64,000 nucleotides of DNA from Methylosinus trichosporium OB3b (GTDB lineage Bacteria > Pseudomonadota > Alphaproteobacteria > Rhizobiales > Beijerinckiaceae), in assembly GCF_002752655.1 (NCBI RefSeq), contig NZ_CP023737.1, forward strand, positions 3,186,001 through 3,250,000, in the 5' to 3' direction. Positions 1,367 through 18,903 of the stretch are shown here, one piece after another. Position 1 is the stretch's first letter, and every line of letters begins with the position of its first letter. The translations under genes and the position numbers were made by a program. The notes under the pieces are model-generated. The model saw only the letters and a program-made list of their open reading frames with translations. It searched no databases and was not told the DNA's origin.

Positions 1367-1475
1367 AGGCCCCGATTGCTCGAGGCCTTTAATTTGCGGC
1401 CTGCATATCGCAGACCCCCGGGCCGTGCCCACAAAAACATTATGGGGCACATCCCATCGGGGCGCAAGAGTCTCA

Positions 1476-1519: not shown

Positions 1520-1643
1520 CGCTTAGTCAAGCCATGGTCGCAAGAAAACAGTGCGCAACACGGAGTTCATAGCAGCCATCGGGTGAGAGGAACACCCCGG
1601 CGGGTCTCCTGTCGGACGACTCGATCAGCCATCGCCGAGGCTG

Positions 1644-1924: not shown

Positions 1925-1973
1925 GAGTCGCTCTCTCGTAGCCCTGGACCCGGGATTGGGTTAGGTGTGGGAC

Positions 1974-3912: not shown

Positions 3913-4052
3913 TCTCGCGTGCTCTGCGGATCAAGCCGCAGCGCAAGGCGGTCACGATCCCCATTTGCCGTCATGTGCAATGTCGTGGACTTTTCAGCAG
4001 TCCTCGCAGCGAATTCGGTCGATTGGTTCGAGGCCGCACGACGACAGCGCGA

Positions 4053-5392
4053 TTAAGGCGCCGCCTGCGGCGGCGCGTCAGCGGCTTCCGGCAATTCCTG
4101 CGATTGGCGCGTCCCGCGTCGACGCGGGCGCGCGATCGTCGCCCGGCCGTCGAGGATGTCGGCCATCTCGTCGGCTACGCGATCCGCCGCCATCCGCAGG
4201 GCTTCGTCGATATGGATATAGCGCTGGGTCACGCCCCGCGAGGCATGTCCCAACAGCGCGGCTATGGTCAGCTCGGAAAAGCCGAGGTCGCCGGCGAGAC
4301 TCGCGAATGTGTGGCGCAGCGTATGCGGCGTGATGTCGGCGAGGCGAGCGCGCTCGCAGATGCGGTCGAGCACTCGGACGACCCCGATGAAATGCCCCTC
4401 CCCCAGTCGGCCGGAAAGAAGAATGGCGACTTTGCTTCGGGCCGAGCGAGGAGCAGGTCGATTGCGGCCTGTCCGATCACGCGGGTCTGCGCGCCGCTCT
4501 TCGTGTCTGGGAATCGGATCGCGCCCTCTTCCTCGTCGAGCCAGCCGCGCTCGACTCCGAGTCCTTCCATGCGGCGGAAGCCTGTCATCAGAAGGAAGCG
4601 GATGGCGGCCAGTGCGGTCGGATGTTCGCCGTCCTCGGCGGCGGCGCGCAGCGTCTTGCCGAGACGCTCGATCTCGGCGCGGCTGAGCCGCCGTTCACGG
4701 GGCGCGCTGGCGAGCCGGCGAACGCCCTTGGCCGGATTGCTCGGGATTTTGCCCACGCGCACCGCATGTTCGAAGATCGCGTGCAGCGTCGACAGCGTTC
4801 GGGCGGCGACCCCTTCGCCGCCGGTAGTTGCGCCGCCGCGGCTGCCCTTGCGCGCCTTCGCCGTCTTCCCGGCGGCGATGTCGGCCTGGGCGGCTTCGAT
4901 ATCTCCGAGCTTCAGGGCGCCGACCTGTCGTCGTCCGAGCAAGGGCTTGATGTGGGAGTCGATCCGGCTGCGGTCCATCGCCAAGGTGGACGCTTTGATC
5001 GGCCGCCGGCGCCGGCCGAGGATGCGACCGGTTTCGGCGTCCGCGAGATACCAGTCACAGAGCTCTGCGACGGTGACGCGTCCTTCGGACTCCGCTTCTG
5101 CGGCGAAAGGGTCGAGGCCCTTGGACACCGCGACCAGTTTTTCGTGCGCGAGATCCCGGGCTTCCTCGACTGTCATCAAGCCGAACCGGCCGATGACCGC
5201 GCGGCGCGGCCTGCCGTCGGGCGTGCGGTAATGGATGACGAAGCTCTTGAGGCCGGACGGCATGACCTGAACGCCGAAGCCGCGCAGCTCCCGATCCCAG
5301 ACGAAATGCTCCCGAACCTTGACCCCAACCTTCGAAGGTTTGGGAGCCTTGAGGGCGTCGACAATCCGCTTTGTGAGCTTTTCTGAAGCCAT
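4053..5392 (-). pseudogene. int: tyrosine recombinase / integrase, frameshifted
   Basis: The N-terminal part carries a prophage-type arm-binding and core-binding region and the first catalytic arginine region (LLMTGFRRMEGLG). The continuation is in another frame from about 4400 downward, with HTLRHTFAS, the LGHAS block and the tyrosine in TQRYIHI. Joining the frames at the C-run around 4394-4405 gives an intact integrase of about 446 residues (FPADWGRG to HFIGVVRVLDRIC). One missing base in the homopolymer therefore removes the R-H-R-Y half of the active site. This could be a real inactivating mutation or a sequencing slip. The ATG at 5392 (ASEKLTKRIVDAL) fits the family start better than the one at 5410. 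Confidence 0.8.
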
Positions 5393-5587
5393 ATCAATCG
5401 CCTGCTGCAAATCTGCTTAGAATGGCCGGATCATACTCCTGATCGGAGCCAATTCCAAGCAGTTCGGAGCAAGTCGGAGGCCACTCGGGCGTAAACACGG
5501 CGGCCTAGCATTCCAATAATAGATTGTTTTATTGTCATATTTCGTAGACGGGCGAAGCGCGGCGCGGCGCGGCGAAGGCTCTGGGAC

Positions 5588-5635
5588 ACCTTGCCAAGGT
5601 TGGGGTCGAGGGTTCGAATCCCTTCGCCCGCTCCA
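5588..5635 (+). other. attachment-site copy: 3' end of tRNA-Gly
   Basis: These 48 bases are identical to the 3' part of the tRNA-Gly gene at 18829-18876 (minus strand), from the anticodon loop through CCA. Identity stops at both ends, and no 5' half of a tRNA lies upstream, so this is not a functional tRNA. It sits 112 bases before an integrase gene pointing away from it, the usual att-int layout. Relative to the intact tRNA it is inverted. Confidence 0.85.
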
Positions 5636-5747
5636 GTTTGCTGGATGGTTTGTCCATCTTTTCAATGGCATACAAGCCATTCCAGTGTCTGACGCGACAG
5701 CGTTGAGCGAAAATGTCCAACATTTCGTCCAACACCGCTCGCGCCCC

Positions 5748-7061
5748 ATGCCTGATTTTCTCACCCGTCGTGGTTCCGTCTGGCACTTTGTCCGTCGCGT
5801 TCCGGCCGAGTTCGCGGCTCTGGATCGCCGTGGCATCGTCCGCCATTCCACCCGTATCCGAATCGCAGATGATCGCGTCGGCCGCCGCGCCGCCCGCGTC
5901 GCCGAAAGGCTGAACGCGGCGCTGGAGCAGCATTGGAAGGCGCTGGCCGCGAACGGCGCGCCCACCGGCTCATCCCGCTACGACGAGGCCCGCCGCCGCG
6001 CCCGCGAGCTCGGCTTCGACTATGTGCCCAATGACCAATTGATCGCCCTGCCGATCGAACGCATCCTCGAGCGGCTGGAAGCGATTGTTTCAAAGGGAGT
6101 CACTCAGGACGCAGGGGCGCGCGCGGCCCTGCTCGGCACCGAAAAGCCAACCGCCTTCCGCCTGTCGCGGCTCTTCGAGGAATATGAGGCCGCGACGAAG
6201 GACGAGACGCGCGATATGTCGCCGGATCAGTTGCGGATCTGGCGCAACAGCCGCATGCGCGCCGTCGCCCAGTTCGTGAAAGTCGCCGGCGACAAGTTGG
6301 TGACGGAGATCAATGAGGGCGACGGCATCGACTATACGGAATGGTGGCGCGAGCGCGTTCGCGAGGACGACGTCGCCGTGAAGAGCGCCAACAAGGATAT
6401 CGGCCAGCTGAGCCGCATGCTCAAAGACATGAGCATTCGCCGCCGGCTCAATCTGCCGGATATTTTCAAAGGCTTGCGGCTGCGCGGTGAAATCGAAAAG
6501 TCGCGCCAACCCTTCGACGCGTCCTTCATTCAGAATCGTCTGCTCACCGACAATGGGCTTTTCGGGCTGAACGAGGATGCGCGGCTTGTGCTCTATGTGA
6601 TGATGGAAACCGGCCTGCGCCCATCCGAAGTCGTCAATCTCCGCGACGGCACCATCTTTCTCGACGCGCCCATTCCTTACGTGCGTGTCGCCGCCGACGG
6701 CCGCCGCCTGAAAACCGAGGACTCAGCCCGCGACATCCCGCTGGTCGGCGTCGCGCTGGCGGCGCTGCGTAAGCGTCCGCATGGATTTCCGAAATACCGC
6801 GACAAAGCGACGGCGCTGTCGGCCACAGTCAACAAATATCTGACCGAGAAGAGTCTGCGCCCGACGCAGGATCACACCGTCTATTCATTGCGCCACAGCT
6901 TCAAGGACCGGCTCGTGGCGGTCGAGGCGCCGGACAGCCTGATCGACAGCCTGATGGGCCATAAGACCTACAAGCCCAAATATGGGCGTGGGCCATCGCT
7001 GGAACTGAAGCTCAAATTCCTGTCGCAAATCGCCTTCGACGCGCCCGACCGACCGCTGTAA
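5748..7061 (+). CDS. int: tyrosine recombinase (tRNA-adjacent integrase)
   Basis: From the ATG at 5748 the protein has 437 residues. It starts with a small beta-rich N-terminal segment (LTRRGSVWHFVRRVP, DUF6538-like) common in integrases of alphaproteobacterial islands. The catalytic domain shows METGLRPSEVVNL (first Arg), YSLRHSFKDRL (His-x-x-Arg region) and MGHKTYKPKYG near the C terminus. The frame is open farther upstream through the att site, but translation there would read tRNA sequence, so the later start is chosen. It probably integrates at tRNA-Gly, because its gene lies directly beside a copy of that tRNA's 3' end. It appears intact. Confidence 0.85.
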   Translation: MPDFLTRRGSVWHFVRRVPAEFAALDRRGIVRHSTRIRIADDRVGRRAARVAERLNAALEQHWKALAANGAPTGSSRYDEARRRARELGFDYVPNDQLIALPIERILERLEAIVSKGVTQDAGARAALLGTEKPTAFRLSRLFEEYEAATKDETRDMSPDQLRIWRNSRMRAVAQFVKVAGDKLVTEINEGDGIDYTEWWRERVREDDVAVKSANKDIGQLSRMLKDMSIRRRLNLPDIFKGLRLRGEIEKSRQPFDASFIQNRLLTDNGLFGLNEDARLVLYVMMETGLRPSEVVNLRDGTIFLDAPIPYVRVAADGRRLKTEDSARDIPLVGVALAALRKRPHGFPKYRDKATALSATVNKYLTEKSLRPTQDHTVYSLRHSFKDRLVAVEAPDSLIDSLMGHKTYKPKYGRGPSLELKLKFLSQIAFDAPDRPL

Positions 7062-7261
7062 TCGGCGAGAAGACGGCGGGCGCGTTCCTTGACACCGGCC
7101 TTGCGTTGCGCGTCGCGCAATTCCGCCTCCATACGCTCGAAAAGCGCGATGTGGATGTCGCCGTCGATCTCGATGAGCCAGGCGATCAGCAGGAGCGCGC
7201 GTTCCATCCGTTCGGCAAGGGACGGCTCCGCATTGGGGGTATCGGACGGATCATTGGTCAT
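6968..7261 (-). CDS. small conserved protein convergent with integrase
   Basis: A 97-residue acidic protein from ATG at 7261: a short variable head, then LAERMERALLLIAWLIEIDG and RKAGVKERARRLL. I recall similar small proteins beside this integrase type in alphaproteobacteria, though I cannot name a family. Its last third overlaps the integrase 3' end by 94 bases on the opposite strand. The overlap makes the exact C terminus uncertain, but the first 60 residues lie in otherwise gene-free DNA and look genuine. A helical, possibly excisionase-like or regulatory role is a guess. Confidence 0.5.
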   Translation of the reverse strand: MTNDPSDTPNAEPSLAERMERALLLIAWLIEIDGDIHIALFERMEAELRDAQRKAGVKERARRLLADYSGRSGASKAICDRNLSFSSSDGPRPYLGL

Positions 7262-7883
7262 GGTGGAACTGCCGTGGCTGCTTACCTGGACATTAAGCAA
7301 CAAGCACAGCCAACTGCACAATTGGCAAGGTTGGGATCGGACGGAAAAGCACCGGAGGGGTCATTAATCCAACGGGCTTCCGCATGAATAACGAAAAGGC
7401 CGGTGAGACGATGCCGAGGGGTCGTGCTTCGCTCCGGGCTGACCTCCGCGAACTCGCGCGCCTCAGCCCTGGCTGAAAGCCCTGTGACCATAAAGATCAG
7501 ATTGAGTCATCGAATGGCAAGGCGCGCGACGGCGTTGCCGCCAACATCCTCGGCAACCCCTCATAAAAGCGCAAAAAGACATTATAGGATCAATATTATA
7601 AACATAGACTCAATCGTATAATTTACTATCCGTTTCAGCTGTCGCACGGTGCAGAAAAATAACCGTATATCGGCGCGCCAATTTTTGTCGATATAGGAAA
7701 ATAATTCCAGTTGCGGTGAAACAATACTGCGTATATTGTTGCCCGGCGCGGTTTCTCAAGGCGTTCCAGCAGGGGCGCGTGAGAGGAAATTCGCCAGCCG
7801 AGACATATCGCATTGAAATTTCAACAAGAATTATCGTGAAACAGAATACGCAGAAATGTTCAACAGCGCCCGGTGATGCCGCC
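7262..7883. other. gene-poor, partly AT-rich stretch upstream of a recombinase
   Basis: No convincing gene is seen. Between about 7570 and 7860 the base composition drops well below the surrounding GC level. This part contains a perfect TTGAAATTTCAA palindrome (7813-7824), an ACAATA-N7-TATTGT inverted repeat (7721-7739) and two similar direct motifs beginning GTGAAACA (from about 7715 and 7836). Such clustered sites upstream of a recombinase could be recombinase or accessory-protein binding sites, or a promoter; this is inference. Confidence 0.45.
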
Positions 7884-8531
7884 ATGAAAGCGCACGTCCA
7901 TCCCGCGCCTGAGGCGACAGCGCTCTACGCGCTCTCCGGCGCGCGCAAATACCTCAACGCTGACGAGCGCCGCGCGGTCCTCGATGAGATCGACACGCTT
8001 CCCCTTGACCGTCGGCTCTTCGCGCTGACCCTCTTCTGGACGGGGGCGCGCATCAGCGAGGTGCTGGCCTTGCGCGGCCTCTCCTTCCAGCCCTCGCGCG
8101 GCGTTGTCGCCATTCACACGCTCAAACGCAGGCGGCGCGCCATCCGCGAGCTCCCCGTTCCGCCTTCGCTCGTCATTGCCCTTGATCGCCGCTTCAATCT
8201 TGCTGCGCTCGGGGATGCCCTGCTTTGGCCGTGGTGCCGCACCACGGGCTGGCGGATCATTCGCGGCGTCATGGACGCCGCTCGCCTTTCAGGCCCCGCC
8301 GCCTCGCCACGGGGCTTACGTCACGGCTTTGCCATCGACGCGCTGCGCCACGCTGTCCCGCTCACCCTTCTGCAAAAATGGATGGGACATGCGCGGCTGG
8401 CGACCACCGCCATTTACGCCGACGCCAGCGGCCCCGAGGAGCGCGCCTTTGCGCAACAGCTGTGGGTGGAGGCGAGTAGCCGCCGGGCAGCGCGGCCCCT
8501 TCATTACAACCCAAGGAGATCCCAGCCATGA
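7884..8531 (+). CDS. short tyrosine recombinase lacking the core-binding domain
   Basis: From the ATG at 7884 the 215-residue protein is essentially a catalytic domain only: TGARISEVLAL (first Arg), RGLRHGFAIDAL (HxxR-like, with G-L-R-H), MGHARLATTAIYADA (His and Tyr nucleophile). The usual N-terminal SAM-like core-binding domain is missing. The frame is open to 7716, but that part has no recombinase features and lies in AT-rich DNA. Single-domain recombinases of this sort are common on plasmids and ICEs. The gene overlaps the next by ATGA, so the two form an operon. Confidence 0.75.
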   Translation: MKAHVHPAPEATALYALSGARKYLNADERRAVLDEIDTLPLDRRLFALTLFWTGARISEVLALRGLSFQPSRGVVAIHTLKRRRRAIRELPVPPSLVIALDRRFNLAALGDALLWPWCRTTGWRIIRGVMDAARLSGPAASPRGLRHGFAIDALRHAVPLTLLQKWMGHARLATTAIYADASGPEERAFAQQLWVEASSRRAARPLHYNPRRSQP

Positions 8532-8743
8532 CAAAAACCTACCGCGTCGCCGTTCAGCAAATGACCTGCTATTCCCTCATCATGGAAGCGGACCACGAGG
8601 ATCACGCGATCGATAAAGCCGCGTCCGCCCTCGCGGCCCTCACGCGCGCGCAGCGCGCCGCCGCCTTCACGTCCGCCGCTGAACCCGACTTCTTTGAAGC
8701 CGAGGAAATCACGCCACAGGCTCGCTGGCCTCGCGGCGTTTAA
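8528..8743 (+). CDS. 71-residue protein cotranscribed with the short recombinase
   Basis: The start codon overlaps the recombinase stop (ATGA), and an AAGGAGAT ribosome site precedes it, so it is very likely translated. The protein (KTYRVAVQQMTCYSLIMEA, later EAEEITPQARWPRGV) has a strand-rich head and an alanine-rich helix; I do not recognise a family. The 3' end of the gene and its downstream flank recur in degraded form at 9769-9940, showing that this piece was once duplicated. Role unknown; its coupling suggests an accessory function to the recombinase. Confidence 0.65.
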   Translation: MTKTYRVAVQQMTCYSLIMEADHEDHAIDKAASALAALTRAQRAAAFTSAAEPDFFEAEEITPQARWPRGV

Positions 8744-8982
8744 CTTCCTCACCGAGTCGCCGTTCGCTGCTCGCTGTTAGGCAAGCAATCTGTCCAGCGT
8801 TCAGCTTTGCGAGTCGCCATAGCGATGGTGAGACCTGCCGATTTTGGTGGCCTGCCTGCGCCCTGCAATTGTTGCAAAAGTTAGGATTGTTCCAGAAGTA
8901 ACCATTGAGCAGCAATGACTTGGCGCGTACAAAAGTTTGTTACAAAATCGCGGGCTACCCACCCACGAAAAGGCCTTGCAAG

Positions 8983-9004
8983 AATGTATCTTTTTTGATA
9001 CATT
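8983..9004. promoter_or_regulatory. inverted-repeat operator before higB-like gene
   Basis: A perfect inverted repeat AATGTATC-TTTTTT-GATACATT ends 11 bases before the toxin start. Its size and place fit a site bound by the XRE-type antitoxin encoded two genes on, giving autorepression of the operon. Binding is inferred. Confidence 0.65.
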
Positions 9005-9015
9005 ACCCGGATTGA

Positions 9016-9366
9016 ATGACCGACGGCTTTGAACCTATCCCGCTCCGCTTCTGGCGCTCTACTTCCGGTCGAGAACCCGTGCGCGAGTGGTTGACCGAAT
9101 TGCCTCTCGATGATCGCCGCGTCATCGGGCGCGACATGGCGAAGGTGCAATTTGGCTGGCCTATTGGCCTCCCCTTATGTCGCCCGTTGAGTGGCGGCCT
9201 TTGGGAAGTCCGCTCGTCGCTTCCCAGCAAGCGGGAAGCGCGGGTGCTGTTTGGTTTTCACGCTGGCGAGCTGATCGCGCTGCATGCCTTCGTCAAGAAG
9301 ACGCAGCGCACCCCGCCGGAGGAACTGGCGCTTGCGCGGCAACGATTGAAGGAGGCTACATCATGA
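9016..9366 (+). CDS. HigB/RelE-superfamily toxin (Gp49-like)
   Basis: A 116-residue protein of the phage Gp49/HigB group: LRFWRSTSGREPVREWL near the N terminus, then DMAKVQFGWPIGLPLCRPLS and GLWEVRSSL, ending with the LIALHAFVKKTQRTP strand. These enzymes are ribosome-dependent mRNA interferases. It is followed by an antitoxin gene overlapping by ATGA, in the toxin-first order usual for this group, and preceded by a perfect inverted repeat. The protein looks intact. Confidence 0.85.
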   Translation: MTDGFEPIPLRFWRSTSGREPVREWLTELPLDDRRVIGRDMAKVQFGWPIGLPLCRPLSGGLWEVRSSLPSKREARVLFGFHAGELIALHAFVKKTQRTPPEELALARQRLKEATS

Positions 9367-9653
9367 CGAAGAAAAAGAATCCGCATGTCGGCTCGACCTT
9401 CGAGAGCTGGCTCGACGCGGAGGGCATCCGGGAGGAAGTCACCGCCGCCGCCATCAAGGAGGTGATTGCGGAGCAGCTTGCCGCCGAGATGAAAAAGAAG
9501 GGCATCACCAAAGTGCGCATGGCCGAGATGATGGAAACCAGCCGAGCCCAGATCGATCGCTTGCTCGACCCGACGAACAACAGCGCCACGCTCGAAACTC
9601 TCATGAGGGCGGCGAAGGTCGTCGGGCGTCAATTGCGGCTTGAATTGGTGTGA
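9363..9653 (+). CDS. HigA-type XRE antitoxin
   Basis: A 96-residue protein: lysine-rich head, helical linker, then a helix-turn-helix (KGITKVRMAEMMETSRAQID, about residues 52-71), and a C-terminal RAAKVVGRQLRLEL strand. It resembles the XRE antitoxins paired with Gp49-type toxins. Start ATG overlaps the toxin stop. It is expected to neutralise the toxin and bind the inverted repeat at 8983-9004. Confidence 0.85.
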   Translation: MTKKKNPHVGSTFESWLDAEGIREEVTAAAIKEVIAEQLAAEMKKKGITKVRMAEMMETSRAQIDRLLDPTNNSATLETLMRAAKVVGRQLRLELV

Positions 9654-9768
9654 AGCGTGATGTGCGGCTTTGCCCGCGTCTCGATGAACGGCCACACCTC
9701 CAGCAAGTTGCTAATTATCCTGCCGCAGCGCGTCGAGCGCCGTTGCGAAGGGCAGAACGAGCGAGCAG

Positions 9769-9858
9769 CGCGCCGCCGCCTTCACATCCGCCGCCGCACC
9801 TGACTTTGTTGAAGCCGAAGAGATCACGTCGCAGGCTCGCTGGCCTCGCGGCGTGTGA
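9769..9858 (+). pseudogene. duplicated 3' end of the 71-residue gene
   Basis: Thirty codons read RAAAFTSAAAPDFVEAEEIT and end QARWPRGV then stop. They match the last 29 codons of the gene at 8528-8743 with about four amino-acid changes. Similarity continues weakly downstream (GATGTTGGCTGCCTGCCT against GATTTTGGTGGCCTGCCT at 8833-8850), so flanking DNA was copied too. There is no start or 5' part. The HigBA pair lies between the two copies. Confidence 0.8.
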
Positions 9859-10076
9859 CCTTCTCCGCGCGGCGACGACTGCTTTTGCTGAGCCAGTGGG
9901 CGAACCGGCGATGTTGGCTGCCTGCCTCATCCCTCGTTCGATTTCTGCGGGGGTTCGTGTCCACGCTCGATCTGCGGCCGACGAGAACTCAGCTCGATTG
10001 AGGATTATTTCAAGCGGAGGACGGTTTGCTCTTGTTCCATTTCACCAACCTGAGCGACGCTAACCCCCGTATTTTT

Positions 10077-10093
10077 AAACTGGCAACCGGTTT
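10077..10093. promoter_or_regulatory. imperfect inverted repeat upstream of abiEi
   Basis: AAACTGG-CAA-CCGGTTT with one mismatch lies 24 bases before the AbiEi start, in the last part of the gap after the HigA gene. AbiEi proteins repress their operon by binding upstream inverted repeats, so this is a candidate site. Weak evidence. Confidence 0.3.
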
Positions 10094-10116
10094 GATTTTG
10101 TGCTAGTTTACTCACC

Positions 10117-10974
10117 ATGAGCGAGCAAAATGCAGGCAAACTAAACCAGCTCGAGCGCCTTCTACCGGAGGGCCTGCTCGTCGATTCCGCTTGGCTTACC
10201 GCGCGCGGCTACTCCACCTCTTTGCGCGCCAAGTATGTCGCCTCGGGCTGGCTCGAGCAGCCTGCTCGCCGGGTCTATCGGCGGCCTCGCGGGCAGCTTG
10301 GCTGGCAACAGGCCGTCATCTCGCTGCAGACACTTCTTGGTCATCGGCTCGTCGTCGGCGGTCGAACCGCGCTCGAACTGCAAGGCTATGCCCATTACCT
10401 CACCCAAAACAGTCCTGAAATCCATATTCACGGATCGACGAAGCCGCCGGGTTGGCTCACCTTGCTGCCACTCAAGGAGCGGTTCGTCTATCGTAACAGC
10501 GTGCCGCTCTTTGGGAGCGACCTGGACGCCGTTGCCTTTCCTCCCCTCGTTCGGGATCGCGCCCGCACGCAGGACGATCCGTCTTTCCAGGAGGCCGGAT
10601 TGCGCGCGCTTTCCTGGGGACAATGGGATTGGCCGCTGACGGCATCGGCGCCCGAACGGGCGATCCTCGAGCTTCTCAACGAACTGCCGGATCATGAAAG
10701 CTTCCATCAGGTCGACATGCTGATGGAGGGACTGAGCAACCTTGCGCCACGGCGGTTGCACACGATGCTTGTCCGCTGCCGCAATGTGAAGGTGAAGCGC
10801 CTCTTCTTCTTCTTTGCCGATCGGCATCGCCACGCATGGCTTAAGCACATCGAGCGGGCAGCGATCGATCTGGGCTCGGGCAAGCGTATGTTGGTCAAAG
10901 ACGGGCGGTTCGATCCCGCCTACCAGATCACCGTGCCGAAAGATCTGCCGAAACAACCGGACGAGGCGCGCTGA
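10117..10974 (+). CDS. abiEi: AbiEi-family antitoxin (type IV toxin-antitoxin)
   Basis: 285 residues with an N-terminal winged-helix segment (LLVDSAWLTARGYSTSLRAK, then WLEQPARRVYRRP) and the AbiEi core containing VVGGRTALELQGYAHYL and the helical LTASAPERAILELLNELPD. In AbiE systems this protein represses the operon and counteracts the AbiEii nucleotidyltransferase without a stable complex. Its stop overlaps the start of the next gene (TGATG), in the standard antitoxin-first order. AbiE modules can abort phage infection or stabilise mobile elements; the location fits either. Confidence 0.85.
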   Translation: MSEQNAGKLNQLERLLPEGLLVDSAWLTARGYSTSLRAKYVASGWLEQPARRVYRRPRGQLGWQQAVISLQTLLGHRLVVGGRTALELQGYAHYLTQNSPEIHIHGSTKPPGWLTLLPLKERFVYRNSVPLFGSDLDAVAFPPLVRDRARTQDDPSFQEAGLRALSWGQWDWPLTASAPERAILELLNELPDHESFHQVDMLMEGLSNLAPRRLHTMLVRCRNVKVKRLFFFFADRHRHAWLKHIERAAIDLGSGKRMLVKDGRFDPAYQITVPKDLPKQPDEAR

Positions 10975-11918
10975 TGGCTTTTGCAGACGCCTATCGACAT
11001 CAGGTCGCACTCCTGATCCGCGCGCTGCCTTCCGTCGCGATGGAAGCTTGTTTCGCGATAAAGGGCGGCACGGCCATCAATCTCTTTATCCGCGACCTGC
11101 CGCGACTCTCGGTCGATATCGATCTCACCTATCTGCCGGTTCAGGATCGCGTGACATCACTGGCTGCGATCGACAAAGCGATGCTTCGCATCGCCTCGCG
11201 CATCTCTGAATCTGTCCGCAACGCGCGCGTCACGCCTTCTCGCTCGCGCGAGAATTTTGTTACCAAGCTCGTGGTTCGCAGCGACGGCGCGCAGATCAAG
11301 ATCGAGGTCACGCCGGTCCTGCGGGGCTGTGTGTTCGAGCCAGAGATGCGCCCGGTCTCACCCCGCGTGGAAGACGCGTTTGGCTTCGCGGAAATGCGGG
11401 TCGTCTCCTTCCCCGATCTCTATGCCGGGAAAATCGTCGCCGCGCTCGACCGGCAGCATCCGCGTGACCTGTTCGACGTGCGCGATCTGCTGGCGAACGA
11501 AGGCATCGACACGGCGCTGCGCCAAGCCTTTCTCGTCTACCTCATCAGCCACGACCGCCCCATGGCCGAGGTGCTGGCGGTACGACGCAAGGACATCACC
11601 GGCGAATTCGAGCGTGGCTTCGTCGGCATGACGCGGGAACCGATCGAACTCGACGACCTTCTGGCAACGCGTGAAGCCTTGATCAGCGAAATTGTCGGCT
11701 CGATGCCCAATTCTCACCGTACGTTCCTGCTGGCGTTCGAACGGGGCGAGCCCGACTGGTCCGCCATCGGCCTGGGCAACGCTGTAAATCTACCTGCCGT
11801 GCGATGGCGGCAACAGAATCTCGATAGTTTGAGCGCCGAGAAACGCGAGGGTTTGGTGAGGCAGCTTGAAGAAGTTCTGGCGCGACCGGCTGAAGCGGTG
11901 ACGGAGAGATTATCCTGA
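10974..11918 (+). CDS. abiEii: AbiEii-family nucleotidyltransferase toxin
   Basis: 314 residues. The nucleotidyltransferase core is visible near the N terminus: FAIKGGTAINLFIRDLPRLS followed by VDIDLTYLP, giving the GG and DxD metal-binding motifs. Downstream comes the FPDLYAGKIVAALDRQHPRDLFDVRDLL block typical of the AbiEii/AbiGii group (shown here as position 140-170). Members such as MenT transfer nucleotides to tRNA and halt translation. The gene is translationally coupled to the antitoxin. It looks complete and catalytic residues are retained. Confidence 0.88.
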   Translation: MAFADAYRHQVALLIRALPSVAMEACFAIKGGTAINLFIRDLPRLSVDIDLTYLPVQDRVTSLAAIDKAMLRIASRISESVRNARVTPSRSRENFVTKLVVRSDGAQIKIEVTPVLRGCVFEPEMRPVSPRVEDAFGFAEMRVVSFPDLYAGKIVAALDRQHPRDLFDVRDLLANEGIDTALRQAFLVYLISHDRPMAEVLAVRRKDITGEFERGFVGMTREPIELDDLLATREALISEIVGSMPNSHRTFLLAFERGEPDWSAIGLGNAVNLPAVRWRQQNLDSLSAEKREGLVRQLEEVLARPAEAVTERLS

Positions 11919-12042
11919 CGGGAGCGCTTTCTCGAGGAATAAAAGACCCGCCATCGGCTGTGATCGGAACGGTGCCATCAACATGGAAGCAGAGGCAAGG
12001 CCGGAGGCGCGGTGCGTCTCCGGCCGCCCATCCCGCCACGCT

Positions 12043-12528
12043 TCACGGATTTGGCGCGCGTTGACCGGATTGCCGCGCGCGCTTGCGCGGGGTGCCGCGC
12101 CGAGTCGTCTGCGAGGGCGGTGCCGGAGCCTCTCCGGTCACGGCGATGGCGAGAACCGTTTCCGGGTCGCTAAGCAGCAGCCGACTTTGGTCGTTGCCAT
12201 CGAGGTCGCGCCACAAGAGACGCGTCGCGTAGGCCTTGGCGGGCGTGAAGCCTTCCGCTGGCACGAACGTCTCCACACGAAAATGCACGAGTGGGTTGGT
12301 CGCCACCTTGTCGATCGGCAGCATGCGGAAGCCGCTTGCCTCGGCGAAGGCCTGCGGGGTTTCCTCGATCAAAATGCTGTCGCGGTTGACCATCACCACG
12401 CGGCCCTGGAAGTCCCGCGAGGTCTGGAAGCGCGGATTGGCGCTGGCATCGTAAGATTCGACAAATGCGATATGCTCGCGGGGAATAAGCCGCCTGCCGA
12501 CGATCACGAAATTGGCCGAAATCCGCAA
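12043..12528 (-). CDS. conserved ICE/plasmid-associated hypothetical protein
   Basis: About 161 residues, beginning RISANFVIVGRRLIPREHIA, with FQGRVVMVNRDSILIEETP and FVPAEGFTPAKAYATRL in the middle and a basic C-terminal tail (RRGTPRKRARQSG). I recall highly similar proteins in alphaproteobacterial conjugative elements, with no assigned function. The only start available in frame is TTG at 12528, and the upstream DNA runs into IS66-related sequence within 100 bases, so the true N terminus may have been altered by the insertion. Same strand as the trbJ fragment beyond the IS, consistent with one former transfer-related cluster. Confidence 0.6.
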   Translation of the reverse strand: MRISANFVIVGRRLIPREHIAFVESYDASANPRFQTSRDFQGRVVMVNRDSILIEETPQAFAEASGFRMLPIDKVATNPLVHFRVETFVPAEGFTPAKAYATRLLWRDLDGNDQSRLLLSDPETVLAIAVTGEAPAPPSQTTRRGTPRKRARQSGQRAPNP

Positions 12529-12626
12529 TCGACATGGCGTCCAGCAAGCGCGGGATGAGCGAAAAAGCTGGGGTCGGACGCATTTTGGGGCGCCACAAAT
12601 CGAAAGATTTGTGATTCACTCGCTAT

Positions 12627-14237
12627 ATGGACGCCATCGGCAAAGCCCTGTTGGACGAAAACGCCGCGCTGAGAGCCGAGCTCGCCGTCGCGCGCGCGAA
12701 GGCGTCGGAAGACATGGCGCTGATCGCCGCGCAGAAGCTTCAGATCGCCAAGCTGGAGCGCCAGATATACGGGCAGAAATCGGAGCGGTCGGCGCGTCTT
12801 CTCGAGCAATTGGCGCTCATGTTCGAAGAGCTGGAAGCGAGCGCGACGGAAGACGAGATCGCCGCGGAACAGGCGGTCGCGAAGACGACGGCGGTCGCCG
12901 GCTTCGCGCGCAAACGGCCGGAGCGCAACACCTTCCCGGAACACCTGCCGCGCGAGCGCGTCGTGATCGAGGCGCCGACGAGCTGCGCCTGCTGTGGCGG
13001 CCAGCGCCTGCGCAAGCTCGGCGAGGATGTGACGCAGACATTGGAGACGACGCCGCGTCAGTGGAAAGTGATCGAGACCGTGCGGGAAAAGTTCTCCTGC
13101 CGGGACTGCGAGAAGATCACGCAGCCGCCGGCGCCATTCCATGTCGTTCCGCGCGGCTGGGCGGGGCCGAGCCTTTTGGCGATGATCGCTTTCGAGAAGT
13201 TCGGCCAGCATCAGCCGCTGAACCGTCAGGCGGATCGTTATGCGCTCGAAGGCGCGCCGATCGCTTTGTCGACCATGGCCGATGCGATCGGCTCCATTTG
13301 CGCCGCGCTCGAGCCACTGCGCCTTCTCATAGAAGAGCATGTTCTCTCTGCCGAGCGCCTGCATGGCGACGATACGATCGTGCCCGTGCTGGCGAAGGGC
13401 AAAACCGACACCGGCCGCTGCTGGGTCTATGTGCGCGACGATGCGCCCTTCGACGGCGCCGGACCGCCCGCTGCGATTTTCTATTACTCGCGTGATCGCA
13501 AAGGCGAACATCCGCAGACCCATTTGGCGAACTACTCCGGCATTCTGCAAGCGGACGCCTATGACGGCTACAACAAGCTGTATGCAGCGGAGCGCAAGCC
13601 TGGTCCGATTCTCGAAGCGGCGTGTTGGGCGCACGCGCGGCGCCCGTTCTTCGTCATGGCCGACATCGATGCGAACGTCCGTCGCAAGGCGGCGGGGAAA
13701 AAGGAGATTCCTTTGTCGCCGATCGCGATAGAGATCGTGCGCCGCATCGATGCGCTGTTCGAGATCGAGAGGTCGATCAACGGCAAGAGCGCGCAAGAAC
13801 GCCTCGCCGTTCGCCGAGCGTCGAGCCGACCTCTCGTCGACGCGCTCGAGAGCTATATGCGCGAACAGGTCGCCAAGCTCTCGCGTGGACATGATCTTGC
13901 CAAAGCGATGCAATATATGCTGAAGCGATGGCCGGCCTTCACGCTGTTCCTCGACGACGGGCGCGTTTGCGTCTCGAACAATGCAGCCGAGCGTGGACTG
14001 CGGGGAATTGCTCTGGGACGAAAATCATGGCAGTTCTGCGGGTCTGACCGTGGAGGCGAGCGCGCCGCCGCTATGTATGGGCTCATCGTCACAGCGAAGA
14101 TGAACGGCGTCGATCCGCAGGCCTGGCTCGCCGACGTCCTCGCGCGCATCGCCGCGCATCCGGCGCATCGGCTCGATGAATTGCTGCCGTGGAACTGGCG
14201 CCAGAAGGATAAAGCTGCGCCGGCGCTGGCGGCCTGA
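12627..14237 (+). CDS. tnpC: IS66-family transposase TnpC
   Basis: 536 residues. N-terminal coiled coil (residues 10-90, with [17 protein letters not shown]), a zinc-finger CxxC pair (SCACCGG, near residue 115), then the DDE core: [15 protein letters not shown] (D), [13 protein letters not shown] (D), and [19 protein letters not shown] (E). The C-terminal IS66_C segment ([20 protein letters not shown]) is present. The protein is full length with no internal stops and may be active, although the element seems to lack its left end. Confidence 0.92.
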
Positions 14238-14239
14238 CC

Positions 14240-14473
14240 ATGCACGTCAACAAGGTCTCTCACGTCACGACCATCGATCGTATCGCTGCGCAGCTCAGCG
14301 AAAGCGTCGACTTCCTCCATGACGTCGCCAATGAAATGGAGCCCGAGGATGGCGTGATCTGGGTCTATGGCCTCGGCGACCTCGAGATCCTGGCATTCAC
14401 CGACTTCGGCATCGAAAACCTCGTCGAACTCATCAAAATCCACAAAGAGATGAAGTTGCCTCGAGAGCGCTGA
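14240..14473 (+). CDS. small IS66 passenger protein
   Basis: 77 acidic residues starting two bases after tnpC and inside the right terminus of the element. Contains ESVDFLHDVANEMEPEDGVI and FTDFGIENLVELIKIHKE. Small ORFs of this sort follow tnpC in some IS66 elements; no function is known. Close spacing suggests cotranscription with tnpC. Confidence 0.6.
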   Translation: MHVNKVSHVTTIDRIAAQLSESVDFLHDVANEMEPEDGVIWVYGLGDLEILAFTDFGIENLVELIKIHKEMKLPRER

Positions 14474-14507
14474 CGCGACGGTCCTGCGGCCCACGGCGAA
14501 TGCTTAC

Positions 14508-14848
14508 CTTGCAGCGCGCCGGTCGCCGTCTGGCTGGCGGAGGTCAGTGACGACATGGCGGAGCCGTTGCTCGAGATGTTGCCGACGACGCCGGCCTGCA
14601 CCTTCAAGGAATCCTCGAAGGCGGCGACGGAATTCCGCCAGCGGGTCTGCGCCGTGGCGATCAATCCAGAGCTGGAGCCGCTGGTCGACGCCGAACCATA
14701 GGTCGTCGCGAAGGCAGTCTCGATCTCCTGGACATCGAAGGCGATATGCTGCGCCTGCGCGAGCAGCGATTGCGTCTTCTGGATAGTCGTCCGGAGCTGG
14801 CTCAGCGTCGAGAGCGGCAGGCTGGCGAGTTGCGAGCTGTTATTCGGC
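14508..14848 (-). pseudogene. trbJ: trbJ fragment (conjugal mating-pair formation)
   Basis: Reading leftwards from 14848 gives a continuous translation with the TrbJ hallmarks: LAQAQHIAFDVQEIETAFAT, then TAQTRWRNSV and LKVQAGVVGNISSNGSAMSS, ending SQTATGALQ at the IS66 border. TrbJ is a periplasmic, VirB5-like component of P-type conjugation systems. The 5' part is cut off by the IS21 element at about 14849 and the 3' part by the IS66 end at 14507, so the gene is dead. It is the only trb gene in the window and shows that this island descends from a conjugative element. Confidence 0.85.
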
Positions 14849-14954
14849 GTGCAAGTTTGACCCCCATACGAGGGGAATCGGCGTTGAAAATTGACCCCCT
14901 CTGGTGAAGGCCGGACAGTCCGCCCGCTTTGGTTGCAAGGGCGGGTGGTGGGGG

Positions 14955-16489
14955 ATGTTGATTGTGGAGACGATCGGGCGAATCCGTCGCGAGCATTTCT
15001 TCAAGGGCAAGACGATCAAGGAGATCGTCCGCGATCTGGGCATTTCACGGAACACGGTCCGCAAGGCGTTGCGCTCGGAGGCGACCTCCTTCGCCTATGA
15101 GCGCGACAATCAGCCTTTGCCCAAGCTCGGACCTTGGTCGGAGAAGCTCGACGGGCTGCTGGCGGAGAATGAGAAGAAGGCGGCGCGCGAGCGGCTGACC
15201 CTGATCCGCGTTTTCGAAGATCTGAGCGGGCTGGGCTATGCAGGCGGTTATGACGCCGTGCGTCGCTACGCGCGCAAATGGCGCAGCGAGCAAGGCGCGG
15301 CGACGGCCGCCGCCTATGTGCCGCTGAGCTTTGCGCCGGGCGAAGCCTACCAGTTCGACTGGAGCCACGAGATCGTTCTGCTCGACGGCGTGACGACGAC
15401 GGTGAAGGTCGCGCACATGCGCCTGTGCCACAGCCGCATGCTGTTCGTTCGCGCCTATCCGCGCGAGACGCAGGAGATGGTTTTCGACGCGCATCAGCGC
15501 GCCTTTACCTTCTTCAGGGGCGCCTGCACGCGCGGAATCTACGACAATATGAAGACGGCGGTGGAGACGATCTTCGTCGGCAAGGAACGCAAGTTCAATC
15601 GTCGCTTCGCGCAAATGTGCAGCCACCATCTCGTCGAGCCGGTCGCCTGCACGCCGGCGTCCGGCTGGGAGAAAGGCCAGGTCGAAAATCAGGTCGGCCT
15701 GGCGCGGGAGCGGTTCTTCACGCCGCGCCTGCGGTTCAAGACCTATGACGATATGAACGCGTGGCTTCTCGATAAATGCGTCGGCTACGCCAAGGCGCAT
15801 CCGCATCCCGAGATGCCGGACAAGACGATTTGGCAGGTTTTCGAGGAAGAGCGGCCGAAGCTCGTCCCGCTGCGCGGGCGGTTCGACGGATTCCACGAGC
15901 TGACGGCGTCGGTGTCGAAGACCTGCCGCGCAAGCAAGTGTACGCAGCTTGCGCAAGCGCAACTGCTATGCGCTTCGACAACAATAAATATTCGGTCAAT
16001 GCGAGCGCTGTCGGCGCCCCGGTCGAGATTCACGCCTACGCTGACCGCATCGTGTTCCGGCAAAAAGGACGCGTCGTCGCCGAACATGCGCGCGCTTTCG
16101 GGCGTGGCGCGACGATCTTCGATCCCTGGCATTATATACCGGTTCTCGCGCGCAAGCCCGGCGCGCTGCGGAACGGCGCGCCTTTCAAGGATTGGGTGCT
16201 GCCGGGCGCGATCGAACGCGTGCGACGCAAGCTCACCGGCGACGATGGCGATCGACAAATGGTCAAGATTCTCGCCGCCGTCGTCGATGATGGATTGACC
16301 GCCGTGGAGGCAGCCTGCGCGGAGGCGCTCGCCCAAGGCGTTCATTCCGCCGACGTCATTCTCAACATTCTCGCGGGCCGGCGCGAGCCGCCGCCACCGC
16401 CGGCGATTCCCACACCCCAGTCGTTGACGCTGCTGCACATGCCGCTCGCCGACTGCGCCCGCTATGATCAATTGAGGAGAACGGCCTGA
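14955..16489 (+). pseudogene. istA: IS21 transposase IstA, frameshifted
   Basis: Begins MLIVETIGRIRREHFFKGKT with a helix-turn-helix (IKEIVRDLGISRNTVRKAL). The DDE core follows: YQFDWSHEIVLLDG (D), GIYDNMKTAVETIF (D) and WEKGQVENQVGLARERFF (E). After VSKTC at about 15926 the frame changes; the family sequence resumes two bases out of phase at RFDNNKYSVNASAVG (15971) and runs to the stop at 16489. The 44 bases between include a GCGCAAG/CTTGCGC inverted repeat, where relatives need only about six bases. A small insertion therefore seems to have broken the gene. The catalytic residues lie before the break. Confidence 0.82.
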
Positions 16490-17217
16490 TGGAACGCACA
16501 CAGTTCTTCGATCTCATGGGAGAGCTCAAGCTCTTCGGCATGAGGAGCGCCTATGACGAGGTGATGTCGAGCGGCATAAAAAGGCAGCATGAGCCGCCGC
16601 GCATCGTCGGCGATCTTCTCCAGGCGGAAATCGCCGAAAAACATGCGCGCTCGATCAAATATCAGATGACGGTCGCGAAGCTGCCATTGGCGAAGGACGT
16701 CGAGGACTTCCAGTTCGAGGGCGCGCCGATCAATGAAGCTCTGGCGCGCGATCTCGCAGGCGGCGGCTTCCTCGACCAACAACGTAATTGCGTTCTCGTC
16801 GGCGGAACCGGCACGGGGAAGACTCATCTTTCGATAGCGATCGCCAGAAGCTGTATTCGCGCTGGAAAACGTGGCCGATTCTTCAACACCGTCGAGCTCG
16901 TCAACCGGCTCGAGAGCGAAGCGCGAGGCGGTCGTCAGGGACGCTTTGCGGACTATCTCACGAGAATGGACTTCATCATACTCGATGAGCTCGGCTACTT
17001 GCCGTTCGCGCAGTCGGGCGGACAATTGCTCTTCCATCTGATCAGTCGGCTCTACGAACGAACCTCGATCATCGTCACCACCAATCTCGCTTTCGGCGAA
17101 TGGCCGAGCGTGTTCGGCGATGCGAAAATGACCAGCGCGCTGCTCGATCGCCTCACCCACCATTGCGACATCGTCGAAACCGGCAACGAAAGCTGGCGCT
17201 TCAAGAACCGCGCCTGA
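16489..17217 (+). CDS. istB: IS21 helper ATPase IstB
   Basis: 242 residues, start overlapping the istA stop (TGATG). AAA+ features: Walker [13 protein letters not shown] at about residue 105, Walker [13 protein letters not shown] at about 163, and sensor region [20 protein letters not shown] terminus [15 protein letters not shown] is typical of IstB. The protein is complete and could serve other IS21 copies in trans even though the local istA is broken. Confidence 0.93.
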
Positions 17218-17355
17218 TCCTCCCGATCACATCGCGAACCGAAACGCACTCGCCCCGGCTGCGCAATCCCGCCAGCTCCGCCGGGGCGAGCGCTCGCGTT
17301 CCGCCCTACGCCAAATGGGGGTCAATTTTGAACGCCGATCGGGGGTCAATTTTGG

Positions 17356-17805
17356 ATGCCGATTGACACGCTGGAGGAGAGGTATCAAGGGATCATGGCT
17401 GCTTGGCTTCCCGACGGAGTGGCGGGCTCTATCAAGCTCGATGGCCACGGTTTGAAGGTCGACGCCGAATTCTCAGGCCGAGGCGAGGTATCGACGGCTG
17501 CCTTGGAGTCCTTGAAGATCGTCGCGTTCGACCTTGCTGCGTTGCATATGGCCGTCGAGGAGAAGGCGGATCTGCCCGCCTTCCTTCTACACGATAGTCC
17601 GCGCGAAACGGACTTGGATGGTCAGCTCTACGACGGCCTGTTCAGACTCGTGCATCAATGGGAGGAGCAGGTAGAAACGCCGTGCTTCCAATACATCATC
17701 ACCACCACGACGGCTCCGCCGACCGAACTCCGGGGCGATCACTATGTCCGCCTCTTGATGAGTTCGACGCCAGCGGAGAAGCGCCTGTTTGCAATGGAAA
17801 TTTGA
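17356..17805 (+). pseudogene. C-terminal remnant of an SMC-like ATPase
   Basis: The 149-residue open frame starts exactly at the IS21 border and reads into a conserved C-terminal ATPase half: ALESLKIVAFDLAALHMAVE, then FLLHDSPRETDLDGQLYDGL (a Walker-B-like strand with following acidic residue) and FQYIITTTTAPP. This pattern belongs to the carboxy ends of large SMC/RecN-like ATPases found in defence-type gene pairs. The N-terminal Walker A and coiled-coil arms are absent, evidently removed by the insertion. Eleven bases separate it from the HNH gene, so the two were probably one operon. The precise family is not certain. Confidence 0.65.
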
Positions 17806-17816
17806 GCCCGGCTTCG

Positions 17817-18575
17817 ATGACGATCGAATCGCCCCAATCCTTTGTGGTCCGCGAGGAATGCCAGAAGGCCGCCTCACAGAACGGCTTCCGCCGCACCATG
17901 GGGGAAGAGGCGGGCTGGAGGGCCTTCGGATCGACCACAGCAAAAGGTACAATCTTTCTGGCGGCCACGGGGCCGTCCGGGCCGTGGTGCCTGGCCCTCG
18001 ACCACCACGGCGTCATCCAAGAACTCAACATCCCCGAAACGAATCTTCCGGGCCCCGGACGAGCCCGTTTCGTCTTCGATACGCTCGGCGCGCTCTATGC
18101 GGTGTTGCGTCGTGTCTATGAACTGGGGGTCTGCCTACCGGATGCGCCGCTACGGGAGTTTGAGCTTCGCGTGGCGGCGCTGCCTCGCGCGACAGAGGCT
18201 GAACGACTCGTGCTGCAGCGGATCGGGCAGGACATCTTTCGCGACCGCCTGATGGATTATTGGCGAGGGCGATGTCCCCTGACCGGAATCTCCGACCCGG
18301 CCCTGCTCCGCGCCTCCCACATCATTCCCTGGGCAGATTGCCAAAGCGATGCCGAGCGGCTCGACGTGCACAACGGGCTCCTCCTTTCTGCGCTCTGGGA
18401 CGCCGCATTCGATCGGGCGCTCGTGACCTTCGACGACCAGGGCAGGCCCGAATTCTCGCCCAGTCTCAGCGAGAAAGCGCGTTTCGAACTTCGCTGGGAA
18501 TCACCGATTCCGCTCACGGACGAGCATCGTCGCCGGCTTGCCCGCCACCGTGAGCGAGCGCAAATTTTATCTTAG
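17817..18575 (+). CDS. HNH endonuclease
   Basis: 252 residues. N-terminal domain of unknown type (FVVREECQKAASQNGFRRTM, then FGSTTAKGTIFLA). The C-terminal HNH fold reads GRCPLTGISDPALLRASHII, then PWADC and ERLDVHNGLLLSALWDAAFD: the H of ASHII, the N of HNGLLL and the later acidic/His region are present. It follows the beheaded ATPase by 11 bases, so it is the likely nuclease partner of that protein. As the last gene before the tRNA-Gly boundary, it sits in a favoured cargo position. The nuclease appears intact while its ATPase is not. Confidence 0.8.
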   Translation: MTIESPQSFVVREECQKAASQNGFRRTMGEEAGWRAFGSTTAKGTIFLAATGPSGPWCLALDHHGVIQELNIPETNLPGPGRARFVFDTLGALYAVLRRVYELGVCLPDAPLREFELRVAALPRATEAERLVLQRIGQDIFRDRLMDYWRGRCPLTGISDPALLRASHIIPWADCQSDAERLDVHNGLLLSALWDAAFDRALVTFDDQGRPEFSPSLSEKARFELRWESPIPLTDEHRRRLARHRERAQILS

Positions 18576-18776
18576 CGTATCGCGCGACATTCTGAATGAC
18601 GGAACCTGCGAGGTCGCGATGGTTTTTAGAAGAGCGGGCGGGCGGCGGGCGGGGATATACCCAGATGCCCCTTGAGAGCGGCCGAGGGTTCTGAACGCGA
18701 GGCGATGCAGTGACTGGGATGGGAGATGGGGATCGACGTCGTGGACACCATGTGGACACCAAGCCAAATAAGCGAA

Positions 18777-18796
18777 GGGCCGCCTTTCGGCGGCCC
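18777..18796 (-). terminator. hairpin downstream of tRNA-Gly
   Basis: GGGCCGCC-TTTC-GGCGGCCC, a perfect 8-bp stem with a four-base loop, lies about 33 bases past the tRNA CCA end in the direction of tRNA transcription. It also reads as a hairpin for the plus strand, 200 bases after the HNH gene. No clear T-tract follows on the minus strand. Confidence 0.5.
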
Positions 18797-18828
18797 GTTC
18801 ATAACGCTCTAATTTTCTTGAGTTATTT

Positions 18829-18903
18829 TGGAGCGGGCGAAGGGATTCGAACCCTCGACCCCAACCTTGGCAAGGTTGTGCTCTACCCCTGAGCTACACC
18901 CGC
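18829..18903 (-). tRNA. tRNA-Gly (GCC)
   Basis: Complete cloverleaf on the minus strand: acceptor GCGGGTG/CGCCCGC, D arm GCTC/GAGC, anticodon stem CAACC/GGTTG with loop TTGCCAA (anticodon GCC), T arm GAGGG/CCCTT containing TTCGAAT, discriminator T and encoded CCA. Its 3' end is the integration target for the island to the left; a 48-bp copy lies at 5588-5635. Confidence 0.97.

What the first reader, a model, noticed from the sequence alone, without database searches (positions are those of the whole stretch)
5588..18903. tRNA-Gly 3' end present twice in inverted orientation across the island
The 48 bases at 5588-5635 are identical to the 3' part of tRNA-Gly at 18829-18876 but lie on the opposite strand. 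Attachment sites flanking a simple integrated element are direct repeats, so this geometry needs another cause. Options are an inversion within the island, an array of elements integrated at different tRNA-Gly genes and later joined, or homologous inversion between the copies. The int gene at 5748 sits next to the inverted copy as a normal att-int unit.
Basis: partly seen in the sequence, partly recalled or inferred. Interest (0 to 1): 0.72.

Follow-up and report, generated by a model that had tools for sequence, protein, structure and literature searches.

The report
Flipped block in tRNA-Gly element array
A stack of mobile DNA elements sits beside one tRNA gene of a methane-eating bacterium (Methylosinus), and the odd backward copy of that tRNA's end is best explained by a roughly 135-kb block of the stack having been flipped between two matching insertion sequences.

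Summary
In detail: window 5588-5635 (C) and 18829-18876 are exact 48-bp inverted copies. The host is a Methylosinus. Its genome holds three exact truncated copies of the tRNA-Gly(GCC) 3' end (A-, B+, C+), one intact gene (-) and one degenerate copy. B and C bracket a 97-kb trb-type ICE as direct repeats. A and the tRNA carry the two arms of another integrase. Why C is inverted: an IS66 copy lies between C and the tRNA (window 12511-14507), with a 99.95% inverted partner 137 kb to the left. An 8-bp target duplication and a trbJ gene are split between these copies; the halves abut in 9 of 9 uninterrupted alleles used. The simplest reading: the block holding A, B and C was flipped, and C lay in the tRNA's orientation before. 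An opposed pair A-int-B recurs in two other Methylosinus genomes, so some opposition is older. Rivals: inverted docking without a flip, an IS66 deletion scar, misassembly. A known kind of rearrangement in an unusual multi-integrase array.

The parts
5588..5635 (+). Core C: 48-nt tRNA-Gly 3' fragment; right-hand attachment site of the 97-kb ICE, fused to the tRNA-side arm of int2
4268..5392 (-). int(C): tyrosine integrase of the 97-kb ICE, 374-aa frame that shifts near residue 333 relative to the intact 446-aa relative in Methylosinus sp. Sm6
1..5635 (.). Right end of the 97-kb ICE (B 3094634 to C 3191635), whose trb, coupling-protein and relaxase genes and efflux cargo lie to the left of the window
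5714..5734 (+). Arm-like repeat TGTCCAACATTTCGTCCAACA before int2; a similar motif stands upstream of 24 of 26 relatives examined
5748..7061 (+). int2: tyrosine integrase, 437 aa, no stop inside; relatives sit 3' of intact tRNA genes
7240..12133 (.). Stretch absent from the Sm6 counterpart (4.9 kb here, 0.3 kb unaligned there): int3 (7884-8531), AbiEi/AbiEii pair (10117-11918)
12043..12507 (-). 154-aa gene with no Pfam match; its Sm6 relative is the next gene called after int2
12511..14507 (+). IS66-family element (transposase ORF 12627-14237), truncated at one end; right breakpoint of the inferred inversion; partner at C1:3061586-3064345
14508..14515 (+). CTTGCAGC, reverse complement of GCTGCAAG: one half of the split 8-bp IS66 target duplication; the other half is at C1:3064346
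14508..14834 (+). trbJ relic (half 1); half 2 starts at C1:3064346, about 136 kb away on the opposite strand
14835..17369 (.). IS21-family element (rve-domain ORF 14955-16298, IstB 16489-17217); inverted partner C1:3082365-3084900, 97.75%
18741..18760 (-). Arm repeat GGTGTCCACATGGTGTCCAC; its only other exact copy in 333 kb is at C1:3093106, beside core A
18829..18903 (-). Intact tRNA-Gly(GCC), host integration site

Best explanation
The island is an array of several ICEs and remnants stacked at the single tRNA-Gly(GCC) gene. C (5588) is the ordinary outer attachment site of a 97-kb ICE whose other site, B, lies on the same strand. C points against the tRNA because a ~135-kb block (C1:3063582-3198510, holding A, B and C) was inverted by exchange between two nearly identical, oppositely oriented IS66 copies, one of which (window 12511-14507) lies between C and the tRNA. 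SHOWN: the copies and their pairing; the inverted IS66 pair; an 8-bp target duplication and a trbJ gene split between the two IS66 copies, on opposite strands, so that un-flipping the block rejoins them. INFERRED: that one inversion did this (the simplest single step); that it was homologous recombination rather than inversion accompanying transposition; that C was on the tRNA's strand just before; that an older event placed an ICE in opposite orientation beside int(A), since that junction is shared by other species.
For: The IS66 copies are inverted and 99.95% identical over 1,997 bp. Read from the X end to the Y end of the element, the 8 bases before the X end of the window copy are GCTGCAAG and the 8 bases after the Y end of the partner are GCTGCAAG; the partner's own two flanks differ (GCAGAGCC, GCTGCAAG), while 2 of the 4 full-length copies in the genome have matching 8-bp flanks. 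The two trbJ halves meet with a 6-7-bp aligned overlap in 9 of 9 uninterrupted alleles used. In Sm6 an ICE backbone (ParB, 85.9%) lies left of the tRNA in the same direction as the trbJ relic here, so the relic looks native to this place and the other half moved. B and C are on one strand and bracket trb, coupling-protein and relaxase genes. The C-int2 junction exists at 89.8% over 3.2 kb in Sm6, so C itself is not an artefact.
Against: Un-flipping makes A opposed to the tRNA, although A and the tRNA carry the two arms of one integrase and are direct repeats as they stand. In G128, A is followed by sequence that in G174 also lies beyond A (170 bp, 92%), so A there is probably on the tRNA's strand with B opposed, and nothing points to IS66: opposed cores are older than the flip and the orientation may have changed more than once. 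The partner IS66 has a parB 5' fragment (51 codons, 74.5% aa identity) on its left and trbJ half 2 on its right, in the order and direction of one ICE, so it could also be an in-place deletion scar. The other end of the window IS66 is truncated, so the reciprocal flank pair cannot be checked. Half 1 is at most 93.3% and half 2 at most 90.1% identical to any other allele used, which neither proves nor excludes one parent gene. One of the other full-length IS66 copies (C1:1657386) also lacks matching flanks. IS66 repeats are classic misassembly points; no reads were available.
Confidence: 0.6

Rival explanations
1. No flip is needed: the 97-kb ICE docked in opposite orientation at a tRNA-Gly core carried inside a resident element, just 3' of the resident integrase gene and beside int2, so C and B were inverted from the start. 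(Not exclusive of a later flip.)
For: B lies 48 bp 3' of int(A) here, and the same A-int(A)-B junction is 93% identical in G128 and Sm6 C120. In Sm6 C85 the same order (int gene, core, ICE, int(C), core, int2) follows a dusA-type integrase instead of int(A), with a short similar sequence 5' of the core. G174 has int(A) without core B. A and the tRNA are direct repeats with matching arms as they stand.
Against: Does not account for the split target duplication and split trbJ. The similar 15-17 bp 5' of B are too short to prove that an attP sits there.
Confidence: 0.22
2. IS66 deletion scar: the partner IS66 marks a deletion between parB and trbJ inside one ICE that ends at A, and the trbJ relic in the window is a leftover of the deleted piece or of another ICE with the same IS66 insertion.
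For: The parB fragment and trbJ half 2 beside the partner are in the order and direction of one ICE.
Against: Needs the other half to arrive separately, on the opposite strand, next to another IS66. The parB fragment is more diverged from the other two ICEs (73-76% in DNA) than trbJ half 2 is (87-88%), so the two may not come from one ICE.
Confidence: 0.1
3. Assembly error: the two IS66 copies were mis-joined and the real order has C on the tRNA's strand.
For: Five near-identical IS66 copies exist in the genome; a mis-join inside the repeat would create exactly this flank swap.
Against: The assembly is 4 contigs with a 4.5-Mb chromosome, which suggests long reads (inference). A misjoin would need two matching errors.
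Confidence: 0.1
4. Integrase-mediated or homologous inversion between the tRNA-Gly cores themselves.
For: Cores occur in both orientations; an archaeal integrase inverts DNA between opposed tRNA sites in vitro (PMC5495485, passages read). The junction at A joins the arm of int(A) to an arm of the other ICE type, as a past core exchange would.
Against: A core exchange between C and the tRNA would move the tRNA 5' half or arms; no orphan 5' half was found. It does not explain trbJ.
Confidence: 0.1
5. Elements integrated at two different tRNA-Gly genes were later joined.
For: Opposed cores would follow directly.
Against: 8 of 10 Methylosinus genomes show exactly one full-length identical gene; the other two, both drafts, show none. 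No second exact 5' half in 333 kb.
Confidence: 0.03

Closest known systems
Tandem accretion of ICEs/IMEs at one tRNA site (PMC5704250, passages read)
   Same: Several elements with unrelated integrases share one tRNA 3' end; hybrid att sites join neighbours (C joins the arms of int(C) and int2; A joins those of int(A) and another ICE).
   Different: Here cores lie on both strands; the passages seen speak of tandem arrays and do not mention opposed cores (that such arrays keep one strand is recalled).
Nested/composite ICE, such as a Tn1806-like ICE inside an ICESa2603-family ICE (PMC12942858, passages read)
   Same: One ICE inside the limits of another element (B..C inside A..tRNA).
   Different: There the target is a gene (snf2) carried by the host ICE; here it would be a tRNA-Gly core next to an integrase gene.
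Polypartite ICEs of Mesorhizobium and Bradyrhizobium (PMC5882170, PMC9174649, PMC8627217; passages read)
   Same: Several tyrosine integrases per system; an internal attP facing a host site can cause inversions.
   Different: No evidence here for one ICE split between separate chromosomal sites; all five cores in this genome derive from one tRNA and several ICE backbones are present.
Integrase-driven inversion between opposed tRNA sites, pTN3 of Thermococcus (PMC5495485, passages read)
   Same: Opposed tRNA-derived sites beside tyrosine integrases.
   Different: Here the traceable breakpoints are IS66, not the tRNA-derived cores.
IS-mediated inversion (IS66 family)
   Same: Inverted IS pair bounding a block, with a split target duplication; matching 8-bp flanks measured at 2 of 4 full-length copies.
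   Different: Nothing essential; that IS66 normally makes 8-bp duplications is also recalled knowledge. No literature search was made for this point.

Membership tests
Integrative and conjugative element (B..C, 97 kb) | Direct-repeat attachment sites at both ends | tested here: met
   B 3094634-3094678 and C 3191588-3191635, both +, identical over 45 nt
Integrative and conjugative element (B..C, 97 kb) | Type IV secretion, coupling protein and relaxase genes | tested here: met
   TrbI, CagE_TrbE_VirB, T2SSE (TrbB-type), TrbL, T4SS-DNA_transf, DUF3363 with Relaxase just under its cut-off (22.6 against 24.6 bits)
Integrative and conjugative element (B..C, 97 kb) | Own intact integrase | tested here: not met
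   int(C) shifts frame near residue 333 compared with Sm6; so probably not mobile by its own integrase
Integrative and conjugative element (B..C, 97 kb) | Excision and transfer | not testable with these tools
   needs PCR for attB/attP and mating
IS-mediated inversion | Two IS copies in opposite orientation at the ends of the block | tested here: met
   3061586-3063581 and 3200507-3198511, 99.95% over 1,997 bp
IS-mediated inversion | Target duplication split between the two copies | tested here: met
   GCTGCAAG at one end of each copy, a differing flank at the partner's other end
IS-mediated inversion | Reciprocal flank pair also matches | tested here: inconclusive
   window copy is truncated at that end
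Polypartite ICE | Parts of one ICE at several chromosomal sites, each with mismatched att ends | tested here: inconclusive

The most novel reading that the evidence does not exclude
Methylosinus ICEs carry several integrase modules, one of which (int2 with a tRNA-Gly core) stays unused inside an element integrated by another integrase (int(A) at tRNA-Gly, or a dusA integrase). This internal core acts as a landing pad for other tRNA-Gly ICEs in opposite orientation, and the opposed cores and backbones then make the array flip repeatedly, a single-site analogue of polypartite ICEs.
Probability: 0.25. Interest if true: 0.6.

Novelty: new variant of a known kind. Interest (0 to 1): 0.42.

Why it matters
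Island borders are usually called from direct repeats of a tRNA end. Here a repeat that looks wrong is a genuine att site, probably displaced by an inversion, so border-calling by repeats alone would mis-assign elements. The genus also shows ICEs sitting directly behind the integrase gene of a resident element at two host loci (tRNA-Gly and dusA). That offers a testable route by which composite ICEs with several integrases form.

Tried and rejected
Window 7322-7339 (TTGGCAAGGTTGGGATCG) looked like the far end of the int2 element. Rejected: in Sm6 the int2 module runs on to the 154-aa gene, and window 7240-12133 is extra DNA in this genome.

I first took A..tRNA as the original limits of one element with the ICE nested inside. 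The arms support A and the tRNA as the two ends of the int(A) system, but nesting alone leaves the split trbJ unexplained, so it is kept as the main rival.

On checking the draft against the calls I had left out a result against my reading: the parB fragment beside the partner IS66 (seen, measured). I therefore lowered the main confidence from 0.7 to 0.6, added the deletion-scar rival at 0.1 and raised the docking rival from 0.2 to 0.22. The rivals are not all exclusive.

Finding the left border of the array failed. The native 3' flank of the tRNA from G146 (1,281 bp) matched the own genome only at two stretches of about 40 bp. The stretch 2917001-3250000 shares only about 6.5 kb with the 200 kb of G146 around its tRNA; since the right-hand side of the tRNA, presumably native, matched nothing in G146 either, this comparison says nothing about where the array ends.

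Comparing the sequence 3' of the dusA-type integrase in Sm6, G078, G187 and G174 to find an unoccupied docking site gave similarity near the integrase end, not at the core: inconclusive. A family-wide search (397 genomes) with the stretch right of int2 found only the own genome apart from 11 genomes with matches of 23-45 bp. In the plasmid collection 31 records matched, none over 80% of the query; the 20 listed matches were tRNA-sized, 11 were not listed.

Literature searches found accretion, nesting and polypartite ICEs. One search required 3 of its 4 terms; none of the 12 papers listed (of 493) contains the word Methylosinus. I did not search for IS66 inversions, so no claim is made that such a case is unpublished.
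Full report
OBSERVATION. The 48-bp inverted pair is real and not chance: a 25-nt core with up to 3 mismatches has 2 matches in the window and none in 100 shuffles. The window lies at C1:3186001-3250000 of a 5.18-Mb, 4-contig genome.

ALL COPIES. A 75-nt tRNA-Gly query gives nine matches: the intact gene 3204829-3204903 (-); A 3092933-3092984 (-), 52 nt exact; B 3094634-3094678 (+), 45 nt exact; C 3191588-3191635 (+) = window 5588-5635; a degenerate copy 2927726-2927775 (+), 94%; and four weaker ones (77-90%) that I set aside. A local search adds one more weak match inside the island, 3026986-3027040, 77%, also set aside. No second exact 5' half exists in the 333 kb held. In the genus, 8 of 10 genomes show exactly one full-length identical gene; G128 and G200, both drafts, show none.

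ELEMENTS. B and C are direct repeats around 97 kb with TrbI, a TrbE/VirB4-type ATPase, a TrbB-type ATPase, TrbL, a coupling protein and a DUF3363/relaxase protein, ParA- and ParB-like proteins, an RND transporter and a P-type ATPase: an ICE. Its integrase int(C), left of C, is frameshifted here and intact in Sm6. Int(A) (3093194-3094585, +) lies between A and B. The motif GGTGTCCACATGGTGTCCAC occurs exactly twice in 333 kb, beside A and beside the tRNA. It sits 144-145 nt 5' of the core in 5 of 5 int(A) ends tested. Of the 3' flanks of the tRNA's type, 7 of 7 carry at least one exact GTGTCCAC at 69 or 80 nt from the core; 0 of 9 rows of the other flank types tested carry it, some of them short. 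So A and the tRNA hold the two halves of the int(A) site. Int2 (window 5748-7061) belongs to a family found directly 3' of tRNA genes: of 30 loci given to the script, 26 had enough upstream sequence and similarity (own copy and two duplicate pairs included); 24 of 26 have an arm-like GTCCAAC-type motif and 21 of 26 a tRNA-like 3' end. ARAGORN on four of them finds tRNA-Gly(gcc) in L127 and L130, tRNA-Gly(tcc) in L132 and tRNA-Arg(ccg) in L133, each ending 111-113 nt before the integrase.

THE ARRAY IS LARGER. A second ICE backbone lies at 2945259-2981739 in the opposite orientation (four blocks, 88-92%, 32.6 kb in all) and a partial third at 3064345-3072456. The partial copy is 100% identical to the 97-kb ICE over 22 successive 250-bp windows (to 3070550) and diverges on both sides, a sign of recent exchange between opposed copies. 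The left border of the array was not found.

THE FLIP. Between C and the tRNA lies an IS66-family element (window 12511-14507; transposase domains), then a 327-bp trbJ relic, then an IS21-family element. A nearly identical IS66 lies inverted at 3061586-3064345. Read from its X end to its Y end, the 8 bases before the X end of the window copy are GCTGCAAG; the 8 bases after the Y end of the partner are GCTGCAAG as well. There the other part of trbJ begins. Of 18 other matches to the relic in 10 genomes, I used the 9 that cover it at about 90% or more and dropped 9 weaker ones; in 9 of 9 the two halves abut with a 6-7-bp aligned overlap. At the partner the two flanks differ; of 4 full-length copies in the genome, 2 have matching 8-bp flanks and 2 (the partner and the copy at 1657386) do not. 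One IS66 insertion in one trbJ has thus been pulled apart, its halves now on opposite strands about 136 kb apart. Inverting 3063582-3198510 restores it. That block holds A, B and C; un-flipped, C and B lie on the tRNA's strand and A does not. In Sm6 an ICE backbone stands left of the tRNA in the direction of the relic (ParB 23566-21458, tRNA 33775, contig C97), which fits the relic being in its native place. Homologous recombination between IS66 copies and inversion accompanying transposition both fit.

AGAINST THE FLIP. As they stand, A and the tRNA are direct repeats with matching arms; the flip would have created that. The partner IS66 is flanked by a parB 5' fragment (51 codons) and trbJ half 2 in the order and direction of one ICE, as an in-place deletion would leave them; yet the parB fragment is more diverged from the other ICEs (73-76% in DNA) than trbJ half 2 is (87-88%).

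OLDER LAYER. The opposed pair A-int(A)-B is not explained by the flip, because both lie inside the block. It recurs in G128 (93% over 1.9 kb) and Sm6 C120 (93% over 2.0 kb; flanks of A and B there 98.6% identical over 210 bp). In G174 a close int(A) (95%) lies between tRNA 2043184 and A 2067247, same strand, without B; its tRNA-side flank lacks the int(A) arm motif, so that element is itself composite. In Sm6 C85 the order core, ICE, int(C), core, int2 follows a complete 353-aa integrase beside a dusA gene (Dus domain). So ICEs of this type sit just 3' of a resident integrase gene at two host loci. Whether the landing site was a core belonging to int2 (an internal attP) or a secondary site is open: the similar sequence 5' of B is only 15-17 bp.

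LIMITS. No reads were available. IS66 repeats can be mis-joined; against this stands the 4-contig assembly (inference). The genus comparison rests on 10 genomes, several of them drafts.

VERDICT. A genuine attachment site in a multi-ICE array; the last step is most simply an IS66-bounded inversion. Known kind of event, unusual array.

Noticed in passing
C1:about 3065050-3070550 and its opposed counterpart near 3125000-3130500 (outside the window; second place calculated): Two opposed trb copies are 100% identical over about 5.5 kb and 87-88% on one side, suggesting recent gene conversion or a second inversion endpoint.
   Followed up: partly
window 10117-11918: AbiEi/AbiEii type IV toxin-antitoxin pair inside DNA that Sm6 lacks next to int2.
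   Followed up: no
window 7884-8531: Third integrase-family gene, 215 aa; a 58% relative lies at Sm6 C85:127241-127861.
   Followed up: no
window 1965-2525: SocA/Panacea antitoxin-like protein; partner not identified.
   Followed up: no
window 1476-1519: Perfect 44-nt palindrome, seen as a self-inverted match.
   Followed up: no
window 7322-7339: Core-like TTGGCAAGGTTGGGATCG without the tRNA 3' end, near the edge of the extra DNA.
   Followed up: partly
tRNA-Gly anticodon arm, window 18829-18903: AACCTTGCCAAGGTT is a perfect inverted repeat about one central base, so the likely crossover stretch TTGCCAA is nearly symmetric (read).
   Followed up: no
C1:1657386-1659381 (locus L176): Another full-length IS66 copy whose two 8-bp flanks do not match: a possible further rearrangement.
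   Followed up: no
G161 C94:5428, G187 C5:143699 and 3182451: tRNA-Gly cores away from the gene share a 5' flank that looks to the eye like a decayed tRNA.
   Followed up: no
C1:2920121-2926652: Many direct repeats (72-79%) near the degenerate core at 2927726, perhaps a repetitive protein gene.
   Followed up: no
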